Shown here: piece after piece, positions 2,070 through 43,861 of the stretch
How the letters are laid out: each line of letters opens with the position of its first letter
How positions within the stretch are numbered: the stretch's first letter is position 1
Assembly: GCA_030272155.1 (NCBI GenBank)
Contig: CP126193.1
Location: 3,286,001 to 3,350,000 of the forward strand
Reading direction: 5' to 3'
From: Tetradesmus obliquus
Taxonomy: Eukaryota > Chlorophyta > Chlorophyceae > Sphaeropleales > Scenedesmaceae
Length of the DNA: 64,000 nt
Notes under the pieces: model-generated
The model's database searches: none
What the model was told of the DNA's origin: nothing
Seen by the model: the letters and a program-made list of their open reading frames with translations, nothing else
Translations under genes and position numbers: made by a program

Positions 2070-5000
2070 GAAACAGGCACTCGATGCTGAGCGTGTGTGA
2101 GCTTGTGGGTGCCCACAGCCAGCCCAGTGCCTTGAACAGCGGCCACACTGCCTGCCACTCGATGTTCAGTGTGCCTATGATCAACATGTACTGCATGTAC
2201 AGGATGAGGGGCTTGAGCAGCTCACTTGGCAGCACCTGCTGCTGTGGCGCGGCTGCTGCATGCACACTGGCTCGCTGGATTGCAGGTGCCAGGCATGGCA
2301 AGCTTCCGACCCTCACCTCGCTGCCATCACCACCAGCAGCAGCAGCAGCAGTGCTGCTGGCACTGCTCTGTATACGTATTGCATCGTTGAGTGTGAAGTG
2401 GCACGCCAGCTTGATGAGGGCAAGCATTGCAATGCCAGCCAGCACATACAGCGCAAGCAGCGTGGGCCATGGCATGCATCTGCTGCAGGAGCCTGTGTGG
2501 GACCTGCCATAGCCGGCTGCACAGACAGCACACAGATTGCCCTGGTAGCCCTGTGCGCACTGCGCCTGCTTGAACTGCTGATCCTCCATGTGGGCGGCAG
2601 CAGGCACCGACAGGCTGCATGCTGCTGGATTCAAGCACCTGCACACGGCGCATTGAAGAATAGAGGAAATGCCATGGTTGCTGGCATGCAGACTTGTTGG
2701 CATGCCAACCCAACGCTGAAATAGCAGCTTGAAGTTACACGTGTTGACGGTTGTGGCTTCTGGCGCTGGTTACGCCAGGCATGCAGCATGATGATGCAGC
2801 AGGTGGTACAAGCACCTTACCTCAGGCTGGCACCAGCAGCTGGTTTGCTTGCTTGTCGAGCGCCTGCTGCTCCCGTTATGGCTGGTGAAGCTACGTGCCA
2901 TGTTGCACGGCGCCATGCGTAGCTAGCTGCAGCACCTGCTTACCATATGGCTCTTGGCACGGATGGCGCAGCAGGTGCCTGCAGGCATCTGTTCAGCTGG
3001 AAGCAGCGGCCCACCTGTGCAGCTGGTTGGAGCGGCGTGAAGACAGCCAGAAGCCGGGCCCTGGCCATATGCTGCTGCCCTCACACTCAGCAGAGGCGGG
3101 GCAGGGCGAGCATGCACTGGCGCTTGGGTTGAAGCTGCAGCCAGGCCACGCAGCGCAGCAGAGCAACACAGATTGGAGGGTGTGTGACAGTAAGGCGGCA
3201 GTATTGGCCTTCGTCGGCACCACAATGCAGGAAGGGTGTGGCTACCAGCAGCACGTGCAAAGCCTGCACTGCAAATTGCTCTGACACATTAGCCAAACTA
3301 GAGATTGTGCAGCGGTCAGATTGCTGCTCATCCAGCAACATCAGGTGAAATGCTGTCTGCATTACATCCAAGGCACATGCCGACTGTGCTGAGCGCCGCA
3401 TGCAAACTACACATGCTCACCTGTAGTAGCCGACTGGGCAAGTCAGGCAGGCGTCCGTCGCTGCGGTCACGTCACCCAGCGGACACGGCACCACCTCCAC
3501 ACTCATGTTCGCTGGCGGCACGTCATTGTCAACACCAGCTGTGCTCAGCACCGGAAACTGCAGCGTGTACACCCCAGGAGGCTGCCGAAGCTTTAAATTC
3601 ATGTGCACCACGCCATCAGCACCACTGCAATTCACCATGATGTTCGCACCATCCAGCTGTGCAGCTACATCTACTTCGCAAGGAAGTTCATGCAGGCCGG
3701 TGACGTTGAGTGTCACCGGCAGCATCCCAGCGTCACTGCCCAGACGGCTGACAAAGCCAGACATGATTGGGCTGCCCAACAACACAATGCGTAATGTGGC
3801 TACCGCCACGTTTGGGCTGTATACTGCAGTGTTATGCAGCACTTCGGGCTCCAGCTGAGCTACTGCAAAATTGACACTGCTCAACATAACTCCGCCACCA
3901 AACCGTGCTGTATTTTTGGTGATGCTGCTGTTCACAACTTGCAGCGCAGCACGGCCGGATGCTGCAATGCCCCCACCACTGAGCGCTGCACTATTGTCTG
4001 CAACCAGCACAGACTGCAGCTGCGTCTCTGTTCGGTCCTGCAAACTCAATGCTCCGCCGTGCTTTGCTGTGTTGCCAGAGAAGCGGCTGTAGCGAAGTAC
4101 GCTAGTTGCTGCACCTTTGGAGAACATCGCGCCACCTTCTTCTGCATGGTTAGCTGTCATGAAGCAGCCAGTTGCTGTCAGGCGTGCCTTTTCATTCAGA
4201 TACACTGCACCACCTTGGCGGGAAGGCACCGCATTGCCCTGCAGGGTGGTGTCCTGCAGCACAATAGCAGCAGATCCAAACGCTGCAAGGCCACCTCCGC
4301 AGCAGCCCTGGTTGCTGTTATTGCTGACTGTGCTGCCGGTGATGTTGACAGCAGCTGTGTCGCCGATCATCAGCGCTCCGCCATTGCCACTGTATGCAGC
4401 AGGCGGGCAGCAGGAGCAGAACATGCAGGCGTGTAGCAGCAGCTGCACCAGCAAACGTACATGTACAAGCCTGGCACACATCACAACACCAAGCAACTCC
4501 GCAGCAACACGAGTTTTATTGAACATCTTTTACCCACATCAAGCACTTGCTGTAGCAACTTACCTTGCCAGATAGCTGCTGCTGATGGTGCTGTTGGTGA
4601 TGCTTGTGGCAGAGTTGCCGTACAGTGCAAAGCAGCCGCCCGCTGATGTGGCACGGTTGCCGACAAGGACTGTGTCAGCAATGCTGAGCTGCGCCTCAGC
4701 ATCAACATACATACAGCCACCACCACCTGCAAGGGTGCCCAGTGCAGCAGCAGCAGAAGCAGCAGCAGCACACCAGGGTGTTTGGCTTGGATGCGTGGCA
4801 GGCTAGGAACCAGCGTGCTGGGCAGCGGCAGGCACAGATGCTGCAGCCGGAGGTGCTGGCACAGCTTGCTTGGTGGCATAAGCCTGGCCCAGATAATCGT
4901 GCACGCCCGCCCTTGTGTGCTGGTTTTGATTACAACAACAAGGCAGGCAGCTGTATGGGGCTTGTAGAGGTTGTGAACATGCAGCAGCATTTGCTGTGTC

Positions 5001-5890
5001 CTGCGAGACGCACCTTGGCCATTTGCCACATTCATGCTGATGTTGCAGCCTCTGATACTGACTCGTGTCTGCTGCCCAGCAAGCAGAGCGCCGCCCACCC
5101 CTGCCGAGTTGTTATGCAGCAGCGATTGCTGCAGCAGCAGCGTTGCTGAATCATACGCCATCAGTGCGCCTCCTGGCTGCTCCTGTGTGTTGCTGCCTTG
5201 TGCAGGCAGCGCATAGTTGTGGGTCAAGCTGGTGTTGCTGACAGTCAGGGTGGCCTGCTGCATCACTACCAGTGGCTTGAGCGAGTTGCCTGCTAGGTTG
5301 CCACTGGTAACTTCTGCAATGACACTGCCAGCAAGGCACAGTGCTCCTCCTGCAGGCAAGTGGTCAGCCAGCAGCAGCAGCAGCAGTGCGCCTGGGTCCT
5401 CTGGGCATGATCTGTGCGTCACAAGCTACCTCAGGAATACGCGAATGATGTTACACACACGCTGACAGTGCATGCCTAGTCAGCGTCATGTGGCAGGCTG
5501 CTCTCAAATTCCAACAGACAGGAGCGCCGCTGGGTTGCGTGTATTGAACATGGCGCTTGACCACACAATTTGCAGCATATGTGTCTGCTCAAACAACATG
5601 GCATACCTTCTGCAAAGCCCTGCAGTTGGACACCTGTGACCGACGGTGCATCAAACACCACGCGTGCATCGCTGCACAGCGCAACGAGGCATGGCTGGTA
5701 AAGCTGGCAGTCTATGAAGCTGACCCCAGTGATTTTGGACTGAAACTGCTCCAGTGCTGGGTGCAATGTCACGTTCAAGGGGCCTCCTTGACAGTGTAAG
5801 CTTGCACTGGAGATCCCAGGCTTGATGACGTGACCTGATATACTCAGCTTGCACTGCACAGCTGGTGCTTCAGGTGTTGGCGCTGCTGCA

Positions 5891-6006: not shown

Positions 6007-6841
6007 CGCGCAATGCTCCGAGTTGGCCAAGGTGCGCAACAGAGCCTGCGGATTCTGTCGTATTTGCAGATGAGACGCACCAGAACCTTGTTGAACAGCC
6101 TGACATGATCAAAAAGGAGCGTCATGTTAGCGGTTTCCGGTGGATCAAGCGCTTGGGTACAAACCGGCCGGAGCTTAAGCCAAGCTTGGACTGGCACGGC
6201 GATTGCAACCGACCCCGCCACTGTGTAACAACACCATGTTAAGTCCAGCTCACGTGTCAAACGTGATAGCTACTGCAAAAAATTTGAACTGTGTTGGCGT
6301 ACTGTGCCACATACTGTACACGCAAATCGATGTCCGGCAGAAACTAGACTGTACTGCTAGCTGGGCAGCAGGCTAAGGCTGCAGCAAGATGCCGGCGCAA
6401 GCCGTTTGCTCAGTAGCTAAGTAGATCCAAACTTCTGGATTTTGAAGACAATCTGATCTGCATGGTGCCAGATAGGCCTGCAGTGCACTGCAGAGCAGCC
6501 ACACAACTGGTCAAAACAGGCTGATTAGGTGAAGCAAGCCGGCATCAATGGCTGTAATGCATGCAGACTGGAGTTCTGTACCTGTCAGCGTGTGTTAGCT
6601 CGTGTTCAGCGTGCTGATGACTAAACGAGCTTCCTGCCTGTTACAAGAACCCTAGGCCAGCGGGCTGACTGTGCACGTGATGTCGTTGGCATACATCAGC
6701 AGCTTTAACATCGTTTGCGACCGGCATCCAACAATATGAATCGAACGGGATGCAGTGCTCAGCAGCGTTGCATCGCATGTTGAATAGGCTCACGCGTGAA
6801 GACGTAGTCAAGCAGGCGCCCACTGGGCGCACAATCATCTT
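6007..6841. promoter_or_regulatory. shared upstream region of a head-to-head gene pair
   Basis: This 835-bp stretch separates the start codons of the minus-strand beta-helix gene and the plus-strand channel gene, so it must hold both promoters and 5' leaders. I could not assign a TATA box or other defined element with confidence. It is less CAG-rich than the flanking genes. Confidence 0.4.
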
Positions 6842-26272: not shown

Positions 26273-28700
26273 ATGGCGCCGCGGCTACGCATGCAGCGGT
26301 CGCCAGGCTCAGAAGGTGGCAACACTGGACGGACAGCAGAAGAGCAGACAGACACCAGGTTGAGTGCATGGAAGGCTCAGTACCCGCTTCCAGACGAGTC
26401 ATCGGGAGACAGTGGCAACGAAGTGGTGCAGCTGTACAGGTGACCTGCGTTGAGCGAGGACCTTCTGCTCCAGCTGCTGCTGCTGCTGCTGAAAGCTGTG
26501 GCTGATGCGGGCTGCCAGTTGCATTTCGAGACAGCATGCGCTGAGAACAACCAGCGAGCCATGCTTAAGGGTTGCAATCATCTCAAAACCATGATCACAC
26601 CGTCAATCTTGCTTTGATACGAATGTCAGACGGATGTGCTTCTTGCTGGCCAGAGCATGTGAGCAGCCCGATTCATTACACCCAGCCTCTGCAACCTCAG
26701 CTCCTTGCTTGCATTATCCTGTGCTGCCTACAACCACAGGCCTCCTCGTGATGACGTGAAGGGCATCGCAATCGCCTGCAGCATCATCGCAGCCTGGGCA
26801 GCGCTGTTCTACCACGGCTGCTTCCAGATCAGGCTGGCCCCTGGGCCTGAGCAGTCGTCCTGGCTGGACATTGCAGGGACTTTCCTGCTGCTGGAGTTTG
26901 TCAACACGGGGCTGTTCATCACCACACACGATGCCATGCACGGCACCATCTGCTACAAGTGAGTGAATCACAATTGCATTGCTACAACAGCACCAGCAGT
27001 GCGTAACTCTATGAGGAAATGCATGCCAGTTGCGGTTCTGGGTGTTATGACTGAACTCATGAACAGGAAGCAGTGTACTGCATGTCTCCAGCTGCTTGGC
27101 AATGGCAGTATTGGTGCCGGCAGCACTGATATGGCATCGCTGACGTTGCTGACGTGTGTTTGCTGGTGCTGGTGCCATGCAGGAACCGCGCACTGAACGA
27201 CTGGATCGGGCGCATCGCCATCAGCCTGTACGCATGGTGAGGGACACGGGCGCAGCGCAGCACAGCACGGCACAGCACAGCGCAGACATGCCAGCAGCTG
27301 CTGACATGCATTGTCGCTGTGCAGAGCAGCAGCTCGCCTGTGATGCTTAGCAGTTACATATCACAGGGGTTAGGAGGTGCTAAAGTGCTGCTAGAGCTCG
27401 ATGATGTCATGCCAGTGCGAAGACAGTAATTACCACTTGTGCTAATCAGTGTTACACCTTCGTTTTGTCACCCTAGAGCTCGATGATGTCATGCCAGTGT
27501 GAAGACAGTAATCACCACTTGTGCTAATCACTGTTACACCTTTGTTTTGTTGCCCTCTTTGCCAGGTTTGACTTTGGCATGCTGCACCGCAAGCACTGGG
27601 AGCACCACGGCTTCACTGGGCAGCCCGGCAAGGACCCAGACTTCCACAGCGGCAACCCACACCTGCTGGCCTGGTTCGTCAGGTGAGGCCGGCGCTTTTG
27701 GCAGTTACATGCAGTGCACGGGCTGGGCCAGTGATCAAGCGCTGAATGAAATTGGCGTCTGTGATGCTCGTTGGTGCCTGGCATGTGTGCTCTTGCTGCC
27801 TCTTGATGGCTGTCCTCAGCCGGGTACTTCAGCTGACGCATTGGCTTGTCAAGTAACGCTGCTGCTGCTGCTGCTGCTGCTGCCGCCGCCAGGTTCATGT
27901 TGGAGTACTCCACGCCGCTGCAGTTTGCCAAGATCATCCTCGTCAGCCAGCTGCTGCAGGCGGCAGGCGTGCCCTACGCAAACCTCTGCGTGTACATGGC
28001 AGGTGGGCACCCAAACACAGACAGCGTGCTGCCGCTCTTCCTGCATGACTGGCTGCTGCTTGCGTTGTCAATGCGATGCTCACTTGCGCGTGACTACTAC
28101 CAGCAGCTGCCTTACAACTTCGCCAAGTGTGGCCAACCTCAGACCGTTGTTTGCTGCTGCTGCTGCGCTGCTGTTGTTGCTGCTGCTGCCTCCACTACTG
28201 CAGCCGCGCCAATCATGGCAGCCTTCCGGCTGTTCTACTTTGGCACCTACCTGCCGCACCTGCCGCCCAATGCCGCGGAGGTGATGCACTGGCAGAAAAG
28301 CCACTCGCCCGATGATCCTGCCTGGCTCAGCTTCCTCAAGTGCTACAACTTCGGCTACCACTGGGAGCACCACAGGTGAGCCTGGTTGTGGCTGCGTTGT
28401 GGGAATGTGACGGGGAACCTCACTTGAGAGCTGTGTTTAACCTGCTTGTGATCTGGCTGTTTTATTTACTGTCACATGTTTTATTTGAGTGGGGGCCCTG
28501 GTCTGTAGGTCAGCACTGCAGTACGCAAGCGGCACTGGACCGAGCGAAATTGGGGCATACAGCATGACTTAGCCAATATCTTACAAGTTACCGTCTGCTG
28601 CTGCAGGTGGCCGTATGCGCCCTGGTGGGACCTGCCCAAGGCCAAGCAGATCACACGCGCATGGCGGCAGCAGCGGACGCTGCAGCAGGCGACACAGTGA
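26273..28700 (+). CDS. BKT: beta-carotene 4-ketolase (BKT, CrtW-type)
   Basis: Seven phase-consistent exons (26273-26439, 26740-26958, 27183-27236, 27566-27682, 27893-28002, 28204-28375, 28607-28700) give 310 residues, the usual algal BKT length. The three iron-binding histidine clusters of membrane di-iron ketolases are present: HDAMH at 119-123, HRKHWEHH at 154-161 and HWEHHR from 275. Family signatures around them include GKDPDFHSGNP, AFRLFYFGTYLPH and RWPYAPWWDLP. Hydrophobic helices (GIAIACSIIAAWAALFY; LLLEFVNTGLFI) fit an integral membrane enzyme. The enzyme adds keto groups at C4 of beta-ionone rings, giving echinenone and canthaxanthin and, with hydroxylase, astaxanthin. In algae it acts in the plastid or at lipid droplets and is often induced by stress; nothing here shows its regulation. 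The start at 26273 has no in-frame competitor with better context. Confidence 0.93.
27391..27554. repeat. 82-bp tandem duplication in BKT intron 3
   Basis: The unit starting CTAGAGCTCGATGATGTCAT at 27391 is repeated head-to-tail at 27473 with only a handful of differences. The second copy ends just before the pyrimidine tract and acceptor of exon 4. Confidence 0.85.
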
Positions 28701-38707: not shown

Positions 38708-39248
38708 GAGTTTGGCCAGTGCAGGTGAAGGAAGAGTAAACAGAGTTAGGGTGGTGGTGGCAGCAACAGTGATGCTGTGAGGTGGCCACCCAAGACAAGC
38801 AGCGTACTGGAGGGTGTGATACGCCTTGAGGTGAGGGTTGACAGCAGATAGCCATGCAAGCCTATCAGCCGTGCAACTCTTGACAATGAGCAGAACAGGC
38901 TAGCAGGACAGGCACAACCTGTTGTGACATGTCACACAACCATTCCAGGGTTCTTGCTCTGCTGGATACCTCTATCCAACAGCATTTCGTGTTGCAGCTG
39001 TCCAAAAGTAGGTTTGCTATGAAACGGGATCTGTTTCTCCACTTGTTGGGGCACCGGAGATGAGCGCGTTTCCTGGGACTTACGTGCTTTGCGTCTCGAG
39101 CGCCTTGATACGCATTGATGTGTCTATAGTATGCTGACATGCTGATCCAAGGGCGCATGCTGAGCCCACCGGCAGTCCCGACTACTTAAACTGTCGTGCA
39201 GCTGCAGTCCGGCTTAGGGTGTGAAGGCTTATCAAACATCGCATGGCA
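38708..39248. promoter_or_regulatory. shared upstream region of two divergent genes
   Basis: This 541-bp stretch lies between start codons on opposite strands. It is less repetitive than the flanks. No defined promoter element could be assigned. Confidence 0.35.
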
Positions 39249-39964
39249 ATGCAGCTGCGTAATACATGGCGATTGCAGCGCACGGCGCTGCTCTGGCTCC
39301 TGCTGGCAGTAGCCTGCCTGCACACACAGGCCCAAGTTCTGGGTGACGTGTTCATTTACACGTGAGGACCGTACTGGCTTCCTTGGTGCATCTTTCTGAA
39401 GCTTGTTCTAATTTGGATGAATGCAGAAAGCTGCAGGCAGCGCAGCCTTGCAGCAGCTGCTGGGGCGCCATCAGCAGAAGCAGCAGCAGTCGCAGCGGCA
39501 GCTGCGCATCGCTACCTCCTGTGCCTTGCCCTCTGTTACTTTGCCTGCAACTGATCACAGCAAACTCTGTTACATATGAAAACGAGCTGCTTTTCCAAAG
39601 CTGTCTTCATTGCACCTTTGCATGCGCGCATGGCCTTGCCCACGGATTTTGCGACACGCCCCCTCACAGTGTGTTGCTGCTCTGCTGCTGATGCTGCTTG
39701 CAGGAATAACTACACGTTTGACCCGTTCCCAGACCTGCCAGCTGACTTTGGTCCAGAAGTGCCAGATGAAGGCATCGACGGCCTGCTGAGGGTGCGCACC
39801 TTACCAGCAGTTTGTCTTGAGCAGCATGACGCTCGGCGCTCCTCAGCACGCATGGTTACAAAGTCCAGCAAAAAGCAGCAATGCACTCAGTTGTAGTGCC
39901 AATACTGCTCACGTAACAAGCATCCTTGGTTACTGCCAGTCTCATTTCACACTCCTGCTGCTTG

Positions 39965-40013
<49 letters not shown>

Positions 40014-41320
40014 TGGCCGACCCAGAGGATGCCTGCAGCCCCTTCACCTTCAGCGACACTTCGCAGACATGGGTGGCGCTCATCAGCAGGTCACAGCAGC
40101 TGCATCCAACCAACTGCACTTTTGACGTCAAGGTGCGGGCAGCGCTAACAGCAGCAATTCGTCTTGGCAGCAGCAGCAGCAGCAGCAGCGAGAGACACAG
40201 CTGAGCATGGCATACGAATGCTTTGCCTTGCTGAGTCTGTTTTGCTCGCTCACAGCCCAACACGTGGGTGGCTGTTGAGCAGGTTGTGCTAGCTGCACTG
40301 CGCCGCAGTCCGCGCGTGGCGCCTCTGTGTCATGCTGCGCCACTGTCATGCTGCGCCGACATCCGCACTACTACCCAGCTGACAAGCTTGATGCTGCCTG
40401 TGCTGTGCATGCATGCTGTGCAGGTGCGCTATGCGGAGGCTGCTGGAGCTGCTGCTGCAATCGTGTACGATGACGTGTACGAGGTAAGGGCCGCTGGGCA
40501 GGCCCGGCTAGCACTGCACACATCATACGGCAGCAGCTCGCTATTGCAGTTGTGTGGGCAGCGGCACGGTAATGCCGCCGTGGCGGCGGCAAGCCAGGTG
40601 TTGACAGCTGCAGAGCACACCACTTGCACATGGATCATGCCTTTTCTGCAGCATACACATCAGTGAAACCGCACGCGCTGGCAGATCACACGACCCACCC
40701 CTGTACTTTGTCCATATGCTGCCTCACCTCCCGTGGTCGTGTGTGTCCACTGCCGCTGCCGCCCTGCCTCAGGCGCTGATCATCATGAGCAAGCCGCGCG
40801 ACCACCCCGACCCCGGCATCCCGGCCGTGTTTGTCAGCGAGAAGGCCGGCATCATCATGCGCCGCCTGCTCACGCCTGGGCAGTCTCGCGTGCGCATCGT
40901 GCCGGTGAGCGAGCCGCGTGGCAGTGCTGCGCATGCTCGTCTCTGCCTCCTTGCTGGCTGGCTAGCTTGCTGTTTCTCAGCCTCTGCCGGCTGGTGATGT
41001 GAACCTTGCTTGCTGGCAGTTGTCTCGGCTTGTCGGACGAGCCTGGTGATGACTGCCTTTCGAGCCTCCTCCGCCTCACAGTGCTGCTGCTGCTGTTGCC
41101 GCAGGTTTCTGGCTCTGCCTGGATGAGCCTGGTCATGTCTGCGTTCCTGGGCTTCCTGGCGCTCACAGTGGTGCTGCCTGTGCTAAGTATCTGCTGCTGC
41201 TGCTGCTGCTGCTGCTCCGCTGCTGTTGCCCCAGGTCTCTGTCTCTGCCTGGATGAGCCTGGTCATGTCTGCGTTCCTGGGCTTCCTGGCGCTCACAGTG
41301 GTGCTGCCTGTGCTAAGTAT

Positions 41321-41351
<31 letters not shown>

Positions 41352-41452
41352 GCTGCTGTTGCCGCAGGTCTCTGGCTCTGCCTGGATGAGCCTGGTCATG
41401 TCTGCGTTCCTGGGCTTCCTGGCGCTCACAGTGGTGCTGCCTGTGCTAAGTA

Positions 41453-41488
<36 letters not shown>

Positions 41489-42671
41489 TCAGGTCTCTGG
41501 CTCTGCCTGGATGAGCCTGGTCATGTCTGCGTTCCTGGGATTCCTGGCACTCACAGTGGTGCTGCCTGTGCTAAGTATCTGCTCCTGCTGCTGCTGCTGC
41601 GCTGCTGTTGCCGCAGGTCTCTGGCTCTGCCTGGATGAGCCTGGTCATGTCTGCGTTCCTGGGCTTCCTGGCCCTGACAGTAGTGCTGCCTGTGCTGAGT
41701 ATCTTCTGTTGCTGCTGCTGCTGCTGCTGCTGCTCCGCTGCTGTTGCCGCAGGTCTCCGGCTCTGCCTGGATGAGCCTGGTCATGTCTGCGTTCCTGGGC
41801 TTCCTGGCCCTGACGGTGGTGCTGGCGGCCTTTTATGTGATGCGCTCCTGGAGCGGCTGGCTGGGGCGGGGCCGCTACGGCAGGCGGGGGGCGCAGGAGC
41901 TGGGCGGTGGGCCAGGCTACGGCGGCGTGGCGCAGGTGAGAATAAGGATTGCATCATGTTAGCTGTTGTTGGATGGTGATGGTTATGTGTTGGCTGGGCA
42001 AGGTGGTGGCTGCTTGTTATGCGGTTGCTGGGGTTGCGCTGTTGCCAGGGATGCGTTGCCAGGGCGCTGAGGTCATATGAGTGGTACATTGCAAGCAGTG
42101 GCGGAGTGGGTTTGGCAGTTTCTTCAAGGCTGGAGCTTTCAGGGCTGCTTTGTAGTGCTCCTTGCAAGGCAATTGCCTGCCTGCTGCTGTGTGTTGTCAC
42201 AGCATCCTGACCTTGTGCCCCGCCTGCCTGCCTGCGCATCTCTGCTTGCTGTGCAGCAGCAGCCCATCCCTGCAGGCCTGCCAGCCTGTGCTATCCGCGC
42301 ACTGCCAGTGCTGGTGTATGAAGGGAAGGCCAGCAGGCGGCGGCGCAGCACGCCGCAGCCTGGCCATGCATCTACAGCAGCAGCAGCAGCAGCAGCAGCA
42401 ATGGCCGCAGGCCAGCCGCTCAGCCCCATGTATGCATCCGTATCTGATGTGTCCTGGGCAGCTGCAGCCAGCCGGGCTGGATCGGGCATGCAGCAGCAGC
42501 AGCAGCAGCAGCAAGGCAGCAGGTTGCGGCAGTCAGACAATGCGGGTTGTGATGCAGATGCAGCAGCAGAGGCTGCGCTGAGGGCTGCAGCAGTGTTCTT
42601 TCCCTCAGATGTGCTGTCATCCTCAGCTCCCGCTGTTGTCAGCAGTAGCAGAGGCACCAGCACGTCTGCGC

Positions 42672-42705
<34 letters not shown>

Positions 42706-43861
42706 ACCTCTGCAGCCTGCCGCGCTTCAGCAGCAGCAGCAGCAGAGTGTACTTGCAGGGTTTGCCCAGTCACCCACAGCAGAAGCAGCAGGGTTTGCAG
42801 AGCTGCAGGACTTACCCTTGCAGCGCAGCAGCAGCGGCACACCTCTCAGCTCGCCAGGCTACAGCACTGATGATGAAGAAGAGCCAGAGGCCGTCATGTG
42901 TGCAGTGTCAGGCGTTATAACAGCTGGGCCGCCAGGCGCATGCGGCGGCGCAACCCGCAGGTCGTGCGTGGTGTGCTTGGAGCGGTATCTTGAGGGTGAT
43001 AAGGTGCGGGTGCTGCCATGCCAGCATCGATTCCATGCGCGCTGCATCGATCCCTGGCTGGCGAACCGGCGGCTGTGCCCGGTGTGCAAGCATGATGCCA
43101 GTCAGCTGCCGCCGCCAGCACTTCAGCGGGAGCTGGAAGCAGCAGCAGCACGCGCAGCAGCAGCAGGACTGGGTGCCGCAGGTAACGCAGCAGCAGGAGC
43201 TGGGGTTGGTGCTGCTGGAGATGCGGGAGGTGGAGGCGGCTTCAATCTCTTGCGGCGGCTGAGGGCGCGGTTCCAGCGGGTGCAGCAACAGCAGCAGTCT
43301 GCAGGTGTCACAGGTGCTGGAGCTACAGCACTGGGAGTACCGGCCACTGGAGTTGCGGGGGTGCGAACAGCGGAGGCAGCAGCAGCGCCGCAGGCGGCTG
43401 GTAGCATAGGCCGTGTCGCGCGGCAGCTGCACCCGGCAGCCTTGTATGCAGCAGCGGCAGCGGCAGCAGATGCAGCAGAGGCGGGCCTGCTGCTGCCGGG
43501 TGGCTTGCGGGGAGGGGCAGGGCTGCCTGCCGTGGCAAGCCAGCTGCAGCAGCAGCAGCAGCAGCAACAGCCGCAGCGCTGGCGCTCGCGGCAGCGCAGC
43601 GCACAACGGCAGTTCCGGCAGCTTGCTGGGCTGAGTCAACAGGAGCAGCACGTTGTTGCCGACCTGACGGCGCCCTTGCTTGCTGGCAGCAGCAGCAGTG
43701 CAGGTGGCGGCAGCAGCAGCAGCAGAGCGGGCAGCAGCAGCAGTAGCAGATCCCAGAGCAGGGCAGCGTCACGCATGCTGCCGATTCCGCAGCTGACGCC
43801 TGTGCAATCAGATGCAAGCTCCGCTGGCTCACCGCTGACAGGGTTAGGGCCTGCATCCTGA
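39249..43861 (+). CDS. PA-TM-RING (RMR/GRAIL-type) E3 ubiquitin ligase
   Basis: Seven phase-consistent exons (39249-39361, 39704-39791, 40013-40132, 40424-40483, 40773-40904, 41753-41935, 42257-43861) give 766 residues. A signal peptide opens the protein ([18 protein letters not shown]). A protease-associated domain spans residues 35-170, with [19 protein letters not shown] and [13 protein letters not shown]. One transmembrane helix lies at about 175-202 ([20 protein letters not shown]). After a Ser/Gln-rich linker a RING-H2 finger has C469, C472, C487, H489, H492, C495, C506 and C509 ([20 protein letters not shown] onward). Members of this family sit in endosomal, vacuolar or plasma membranes, sense luminal cargo with the PA domain and ubiquitinate on the cytosolic side; plant RMRs sort vacuolar proteins. 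Five near-copies of the transmembrane exon start lie in the preceding intron. Confidence 0.9.
41105..41827 (+). repeat. six-copy array of the transmembrane-exon start
   Basis: Acceptor plus exon start recur at 41105, 41235, 41368, 41493, 41617 and 41753, with spacings of 130, 133, 125, 124 and 136 bases. Each unit has a CTG run, a TTGCC(G/C/T)CAG acceptor and about 72 exon bases coding for [20 protein letters not shown]. The first five copies then leave the exon with CTGCCTGTGCTAAGTATCTG, or close variants, and re-enter CTG repeats. Only the sixth continues as a full exon with a normal donor at 41936. The units are nearly identical apart from CTG number. Confidence 0.92.

What the first reader, a model, noticed from the sequence alone, without database searches (positions are those of the whole stretch)
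41105..41935. Five extra tandem copies of a transmembrane exon start in a RING ligase gene
Acceptor plus about 72 coding bases of the only TM helix occur six times at 124-136 bp spacing, nearly identical in the coding part while CTG length varies. Only the last copy is a complete exon. The array could offer competing acceptors, act as a splicing buffer, or be a very recent exon-containing minisatellite.
Basis: seen in the sequence. Interest (0 to 1): 0.78.

Follow-up and report, generated by a model that had tools for sequence, protein, structure and literature searches.

The report
Repeated splice-site and exon-start array
In a green alga's gene, the end of an intron together with the start of the next exon has been copied head-to-tail several times, and arrays of the same kind turn up at splice junctions of other genes sampled from the same genome, which raises the question of how its splicing machinery picks the right copy.

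Summary
Six copies (acceptors 41105-41753, spacing 124-136) lie in intron 5 of a seven-exon PA-TM-RING gene; only the last is a complete exon, as the geometry of a tandem duplication across an acceptor demands. The extra acceptors look unproductive: from acceptors 1-4 the frame meets stops, acceptor 5 enters exon 6 in the wrong frame, and none of 47 GTs in the region fits the gene's own donors. The array is not unique: by eye, splice-site-crossing arrays occur in 17 of 73 other loci sampled (DEAD-box 11 of 25, RING/PA 6 of 40, LHC 0 of 8; a reading frame was assigned in 11 of the 17). In 13 arrays, changes in extra copies are mostly synonymous (80 of 122; 45 expected under a strongly biased spectrum), strongly so for shared changes (35:4), less for private ones (45:38). 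Best reading: repeated tandem duplication across exon-intron boundaries, with copies that descend from, or exchange with, the functional exon. Which acceptor is used in RNA was not tested.

The parts
39243..43861 (+). PA-TM-RING-H2 gene, seven exons: 39243-39361, 39704-39791, 40013-40132, 40424-40483, 40773-40904, 41753-41935, 42260-43861
   Evidence: open joined frame; PF02225 43.7 bits and PF13639 53.7 bits, both over cut-off (first 529 residues); the 5' end of the last exon is one of several neighbouring CAG options; no RNA evidence
40905..41752 (+). intron 5, 848 nt, holding the array (the other five introns of the model are 221-342 nt)
41016..41089 (+). decayed seventh copy ('copy 0'): GCAG at 41016-41019 and exon-derived 41022-41089, with several one-base indels
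41105..41176 (+). extra copy 1 of the exon start (72 nt)
41235..41306 (+). extra copy 2 (holds the only nonsynonymous change among the five extra copies, Gly3 to Val)
41368..41439 (+). extra copy 3
41493..41564 (+). extra copy 4
41617..41688 (+). extra copy 5, closest to the functional copy (3 mismatches of 72)
41689..41752 (+). intron-derived part of the last unit: branch-point-like CTGAG, CTG-rich tract, CCGCAG; its counterpart lies before copies 2-5 (CTAAG there)
   Evidence: sequence; the branch-point reading is inference
41753..41935 (+). exon 6, the one complete copy; its first 72 nt are the repeated part and encode the hydrophobic (TM) stretch [24 protein letters not shown]

Best explanation
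The array is a series of tandem duplications of one segment that crosses the 3' splice site of intron 5 (end of the intron plus the first 72 nt of exon 6). Breakpoints probably lie in CTG-type sequence at both ends (inferred). It has grown and turned over by unequal exchange or gene conversion (inferred). The last copy is the exon used for the full-length protein (inferred from reading frames); the others sit in the intron as unproductive 3' splice sites, each with its pyrimidine/CTG tract and CAG kept. They stay similar to the exon because they descend from it, or are overwritten by it, while it is held by selection. Arrays of this kind lie at acceptors and donors of a good share of the genes sampled in this genome. 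How the spliceosome passes five good-looking acceptors is not known; the simplest suggestion is exon definition, because only the last acceptor forms a short exon (183 nt) with the donor at 41935, the others giving 319-831 nt.
For: Array anatomy and decayed copy. Acceptors 1-4 lead to stops and acceptor 5 enters exon 6 in a shifted frame; 0 of 47 GTs in 41105-41752 fit GTRMG, while 6 of 6 introns of the gene model start that way. Same architecture elsewhere in the genome, assigned by eye: splice-site-crossing arrays in 11 of 25 DEAD-box loci and 6 of 40 RING/PA loci (three arrays in one RING gene). In the 11 DEAD loci with TRF arrays of period 45 or more (union) the unit holds a splice site. 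Ancestry signal over 13 arrays: 80 synonymous, 42 nonsynonymous; expected synonymous 35.1 (kappa 2) or 45.5 (ts x6, GC>AT x3), P about 2e-10; shared changes 35S:4N, private 45S:38N (Fisher P 8e-5). The two wrong frames give 22 of 122 each, and 45-nt (window: 40-nt) intron parts of the same arrays show no 3-base periodicity (23/16/13, P 0.22). Simple extension from the extra splice site stays open and in frame in 7 of 49 extra copies.
Against: No transcript data: which acceptor is used is inferred. Divergence from the functional copy does not rise steadily with distance (rank correlations from -0.87 to +1.0 over the nine arrays with three or more extra copies), so stepwise growth from the functional end alone is not supported and exchange must be invoked. 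Private changes too are more synonymous than expected (45 of 83, P 0.001), and none of the 42 nonsynonymous changes makes a stop; some translation of the copies could explain both. Seven of 49 extra copies would give an open in-frame extension. The eight LHC loci had no array, so the habit may not be uniform (only 15.2 kb, shorter loci; by my own rough arithmetic zero is not significant). For 6 of the 17 other loci (L009, L015, L037, L077, L079, L080) no reading frame was worked out.
Confidence: 0.74

Rival explanations
1. Regulated competing acceptors: use of acceptors 1-5 makes truncated membrane-anchored PA proteins without RING (decoy receptors), or targets for mRNA decay, tuning the ligase.
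For: All five extra acceptors keep the CTG/pyrimidine tract and CAG; reading from them gives the whole TM stretch, then a tail and a stop or a shifted frame. The window copies alone show 6 synonymous to 1 nonsynonymous change (P 0.004 with kappa 2), and over 13 arrays none of 42 nonsynonymous changes makes a stop.
Against: Tails are junk-like (poly-Cys, poly-Leu). The synonymous excess is seen over arrays of unrelated genes and is strongest for shared changes, as expected from ancestry. In the other arrays most extra copies lead to stops or a shifted frame (42 of 49 over all 13 arrays).
Confidence: 0.13
2. Random tandem duplication with no tie to splice junctions: units of about 100-170 bp in intron-rich genes often cross a junction by chance. 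(Not exclusive of the best explanation: it concerns where such arrays arise.)
For: Unit sizes are mostly about 90-180 bp; a purely intronic array exists at window 27391-27550. With the published T. obliquus mean intron of 462 bp (PMC5966456, passage) and an assumed 150-bp exon, my own arithmetic lets a 130-bp unit cross a junction about 43% of the time.
Against: In 11 of 11 DEAD loci with TRF arrays of period 45 or more the unit holds a splice site. This is a small sample read by eye, loci are centred on exons, and a functional exon may merely keep such arrays detectable. In the RING/PA loci arrays not assigned to a splice site exist too (L008, L010, L034, L036, a second one in L041).
Confidence: 0.3
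3. In-frame mini-exons: each unit is spliced as a 75-nt exon using the GTGCTA donor, adding further TM segments.
For: 75 nt is a multiple of three, and GTGCTA occurs four times among the five units.
Against: No GT in the region fits GTRMG, while all six introns of the gene model start GTRMG; copy 5 reads GTGCTG at this place.
Confidence: 0.03
4. Assembly artefact.
For: Short near-identical units with CTG tracts are hard to assemble.
Against: Copies carry private substitutions and different CTG lengths, there is a decayed copy, and more diverged arrays of the kind exist elsewhere.
Confidence: 0.03

Closest known systems
Potato RdRp gene: tandem duplication across the intron-1/exon-2 boundary creating a new intron (PMC4974935; abstract and passages seen)
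   Same: The duplicated segment is the 3' side of an intron plus the 5' side of the next exon, and carries the putative branch site, pyrimidine tract and acceptor along.
   Different: Two copies in one gene, with a cryptic donor used and a new intron formed; here up to seven copies, no donor-like GT in the unit, and similar arrays in other genes.
[quoted passage not shown] review PMC3443670, passages seen; Drosophila cases PMC2891723, abstract seen; Gao and Lynch 2009, recalled, not held)
   Same: Internal gene duplication that multiplies splice signals.
   Different: The model concerns exonic AGGT segments and new introns; here an existing intron is lengthened.
Human 6-16/IFI6 minisatellite with repeated splice donors (recalled only; the search did not find it)
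   Same: Tandem units, each carrying a splice site, at an exon end.
   Different: As recalled, a single gene, short units, several donors in use; here several genes, more often acceptors, use unknown.

Membership tests
PA-TM-RING ubiquitin ligases (RMR/RNF13-like) | PA domain in the N-terminal part | tested here: met
   PF02225, 43.7 bits, cut-off 23.9, residues 73-155
PA-TM-RING ubiquitin ligases (RMR/RNF13-like) | RING-H2 after the TM segment | tested here: met
   PF13639, 53.7 bits, cut-off 27.3, residues 469-511
PA-TM-RING ubiquitin ligases (RMR/RNF13-like) | signal peptide and one TM helix between the two domains | tested here: inconclusive
   hydrophobic N-terminus and one hydrophobic stretch seen by eye in the translation; no predictor run
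Tandem duplication across an exon-intron boundary | head-to-tail copies of a segment holding both intron and exon sequence | tested here: met
   exon and intron parts follow from the gene model
[quoted passage not shown]
   no GT fitting GTRMG in the array, so none is expected, but no RNA was seen
Competing tandem acceptors with regulated use | more than one acceptor used in transcripts | not testable with these tools
   no RNA data
Introners (intron-making transposable elements) | similar introns dispersed over many genes | tested here: not met
   the unit of this array was found only here; arrays of other genes have units of their own

The most novel reading that the evidence does not exclude
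This alga's genome runs a continuing process that makes and turns over arrays of splice junctions (intron end plus exon start, or exon end plus intron start) in a large share of its genes. The arrays exchange sequence with the functional exon, so they hold a record of its past synonymous states and a reservoir that can feed back into it, and its splicing must rest on exon definition or a similar rule to tolerate them.
Probability: 0.4. Interest if true: 0.8.

Novelty: new variant of a known kind. Interest (0 to 1): 0.62.

Why it matters
Single boundary-crossing duplications are known. Splice-site arrays of several copies in a sizeable share of genes did not show up in the searches made here (listings, often capped, of open-licence papers; six papers opened in part). 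If transcripts always use the one correct copy, these arrays are natural experiments on how a spliceosome chooses among near-identical sites, in a group of algae where short introns have led others to presume intron definition (Volvox paper PMC4378016, passages). They may also give a record of the functional exon's history and a source of new exons or introns.

Tried and rejected
In-frame mini-exon model: rejected for lack of donor-like sites. Growth from the functional end as the only process: not supported by distance gradients. Further decayed copies between 40905 and 41030: none above chance (747 of 1000 shuffles reach the score). A paralogue with a single-copy junction: none found for exons 5-6 (7 matches at E up to 10, all in this gene). 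Introners: the unit is found only here (PMC9860276, two passages). HMM tables for LHC and actin showed no clear repeated profile segments, but this view is insensitive: the DEAD table does not show the DEAD arrays either. Species name: not established; 104.66 Mb, GC 54-63% over 4-kb stretches of the window and LHC genes suggest a green alga, and the figures resemble Tetradesmus obliquus in PMC5966456 (108 Mb, 57% GC, mean intron 462 bp; passage seen), which is inference; one search was a search for such a genome paper that did not settle it.

Limits of the counts. Loci were those the tool cut out: 12 of 12 PA matches, 30 of 61 RING matches, 30 of 35 DEAD matches, 8 hand-picked stretches covering part of the 52 LHC matches, none of 21 ABC matches. 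The window gene's own RING locus was dropped and overlapping loci merged, leaving 12 PA + 28 RING, 25 DEAD and 8 LHC = 73. Loci are about 3.1-3.7 kb (LHC 1.8-2.3 kb), so arrays further out in these genes are not seen. Assignment to splice sites was by eye; 11 of the 17 loci had a frame assigned (L029, L041, L056, L063, L064, L066, L067, L070, L071, L076, L084), six had not. L077 shows its array only, L080 only. Arrays not assigned to a splice site: L008, L010, L034, L036, a second one in L041, and one in L056 (8557-9370).

The synonymous test used 13 arrays of 12 genes with fragments and frames set by hand; splice-crossing arrays in L009, L015, L037, L077, L079, L080 and a two-copy one in L056 were not in it (few or short copies, or no frame assigned). 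Copies scoring below 45% of the full alignment score, such as the decayed window copy, were not counted, and changes shared by all extra copies were set aside (7 synonymous, 0 nonsynonymous). Two arrays go the other way: L029 and L041 have 0 synonymous and 3 nonsynonymous each. Without L071 and L084 the excess is 38 of 62 (24.2 expected, P 3e-4). Changes inside an array are not independent, so P values are rough. In one search the printed splice-dinucleotide count (35 of 49) is too low, because the fragment ends of two L056 arrays were set off by one to four bases; read by eye against, 47 of 49 keep the dinucleotide.

Full report
WHAT IS THERE. The window is bases 3286001-3350000 of contig 3 of an unnamed 104.66 Mb, 17-contig genome with 52 matches to the chlorophyll a/b-binding family, so most likely a green alga. 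The finding lies in a seven-exon gene on the + strand, 39243-43861, whose joined frame is open and whose product has a PA domain and a RING-H2 domain above the Pfam cut-offs: a PA-TM-RING type ubiquitin ligase. Five of its introns are 221-342 nt; intron 5 is 848 nt.

THE ARRAY. Intron 5 ends in a tandem array. Acceptors lie at 41105, 41235, 41368, 41493, 41617 and 41753 (spacing 130/133/125/124/136). Each is followed by the same 72 exon-type bases encoding the hydrophobic TM stretch (3-5 mismatches to the last copy), and, in the first five, by an intron-type piece (CCTGTGCTAAGTATCTG or a variant, a CTG tract, then TTGCCNCAG). Only the last copy runs on into the complete exon, 41753-41935. It missed an older copy: the exon-derived part at 41022-41089, with several one-base indels, scores 54 against a maximum of 29 in 2421 control stretches (with the CTG tract left in the query, 11 of 627 stretches score as high). 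The unit was found nowhere else in the genome, and exons 5-6 gave no paralogue.

WHAT THE EXTRA COPIES COULD ENCODE. A duplication that crosses an acceptor must give incomplete copies followed by one complete one; this is geometry. Reading on from acceptors 1-4 meets a stop; acceptor 5 reaches the exon's end but in a shifted frame. Between 41105 and 41752 none of 47 GTs fits GTRMG, while all six introns of the gene model start that way. So neither simple extension nor consensus mini-exons make a RING protein; only acceptor 6 does. This is inference from reading frames; there are no transcript data.

NOT ALONE. The RING search showed fragments of a RING repeated near one another on contig 15. 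That gene (L056) has three arrays: acceptor plus exon start x2, exon end plus donor (nine places at 60% identity or more, complete copy included), and acceptor plus exon start x4 with an older fifth (the older one by eye and). Tandem Repeats Finder on loci already cut out for RING and PA matches and on DEAD-box loci, then reading of the oriented arrays, gave splice-site-crossing arrays in 6 of 40 RING/PA loci and 11 of 25 DEAD loci; eight LHC loci had none. Seven of the DEAD loci are on the acceptor side (L064, L066, L070, L071, L077, L080, L084) and four on the donor side (L063, L067, L076, L079). L071 shows the exon start with helicase motif I eight times by eye, complete and decayed copies included. 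In 11 of 11 DEAD loci with TRF arrays of period 45 or more (union) the unit holds a splice site; my rough estimate for random placement is 43%. That enrichment rests on few loci, read by eye, and frames were not worked out for six of the 17 loci.

THE COPIES CARRY A CODING SIGNATURE. In 13 arrays I compared the exon parts of the extra copies with the complete copy, setting aside changes shared by all extra copies (7 synonymous, 0 nonsynonymous). Of 122 changes 80 are synonymous, where 35.1 are expected with kappa 2 and 45.5 with a strongly transition- and AT-biased spectrum (P about 2e-10); codon positions are 24/22/76. Read in the two wrong frames the same changes give 22 of 122 each, and the adjoining intron parts show no three-base pattern (23/16/13). 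Without the two largest arrays it is 38 of 62 (24.2 expected, P 3e-4). The window array alone has 6 of 7; two small arrays (L029, L041) have 0 of 3 each. Changes seen in more than one extra copy are 35 synonymous to 4 nonsynonymous; those in a single copy 45 to 38 (Fisher P 8e-5).

READING OF THIS SIGNATURE. If the copies were translated, private and shared changes should both be constrained. If the copies descend from the functional exon, or are overwritten by it, old (shared) changes passed selection while the sequence was functional and young (private) ones arose freely. The data lean to the second. That private changes remain above the neutral expectation (45 of 83, P 0.001) and that no change makes a stop fit a mixture, but leave room for some translation. 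Simple extension from an extra splice site is open and in frame in only 7 of 49 extra copies. Distance from the functional copy does not order the divergence consistently, so exchange among copies is needed besides stepwise growth.

HOW IT MAY WORK. Shown: repeated duplication across the modelled junction, kept splice signals, decayed and fresh copies, and a coding signature. Inferred: ancestry or exchange as its cause, CTG-rich ends as breakpoints, gene conversion or unequal exchange, and sole productive use of the last acceptor. A rule that could let the gene tolerate five decoy acceptors is exon definition: the last acceptor makes a 183-nt exon with the donor at 41935, the others 319-831 nt. 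For Volvox others argue from short introns for intron definition (PMC4378016, passages), so this is testable.

KNOWN OR NEW. The nearest published case I found is a potato RdRp gene in which one duplication across the intron-exon boundary made a new intron (PMC4974935, abstract and passages). [quoted passage not shown] A human minisatellite with repeated donors (6-16/IFI6) is recalled only. The array here is of that general kind; multi-copy splice-junction arrays in a good part of the genes sampled look like a new variant. No report of it appeared in the listings, which cover open-licence papers only and were often capped (for example 20 of 1,396 listed).

VERDICT. As a single case it would be a curiosity; as one member of a habit seen in several gene families of this genome, with a coding signature, it deserves a proper survey.

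Noticed in passing
L056 (G000:C15:1575501-1585500): 3621-3804, 3918-5640, 6032-6348: A RING-H2 gene with three splice-junction arrays, on acceptor and donor sides, one with a 354-bp higher-order period.
   Followed up: partly
L071 oriented 553-1592; L084 oriented 663-1609: DEAD-box genes whose exon starts (motif I in L071; VAEHLQALGKHVGIRVAALVGG in L084) are repeated with their acceptors, eight and six times by eye.
   Followed up: partly
window 39955-40012: A CTG tract sits right before the acceptor of exon 3, as in the array; such tracts may serve as the polypyrimidine tract here and may also seed duplications.
   Followed up: no
window 27391-27550: An 82-bp unit repeated twice, apparently intronic, ending shortly before an acceptor-like TTTGCCAG and holding a branch-point-like TGCTAAT.
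   Followed up: no
L072 and L073 (G000:C2:8541825 and 8545417): Two DEAD-box matches 3.6 kb apart with identical scores, perhaps a recent tandem gene duplication.
   Followed up: no
L067 oriented, about 2236-2260: A run of about 24 G shortly after a donor-side array; real or a sequencing problem.
   Followed up: no
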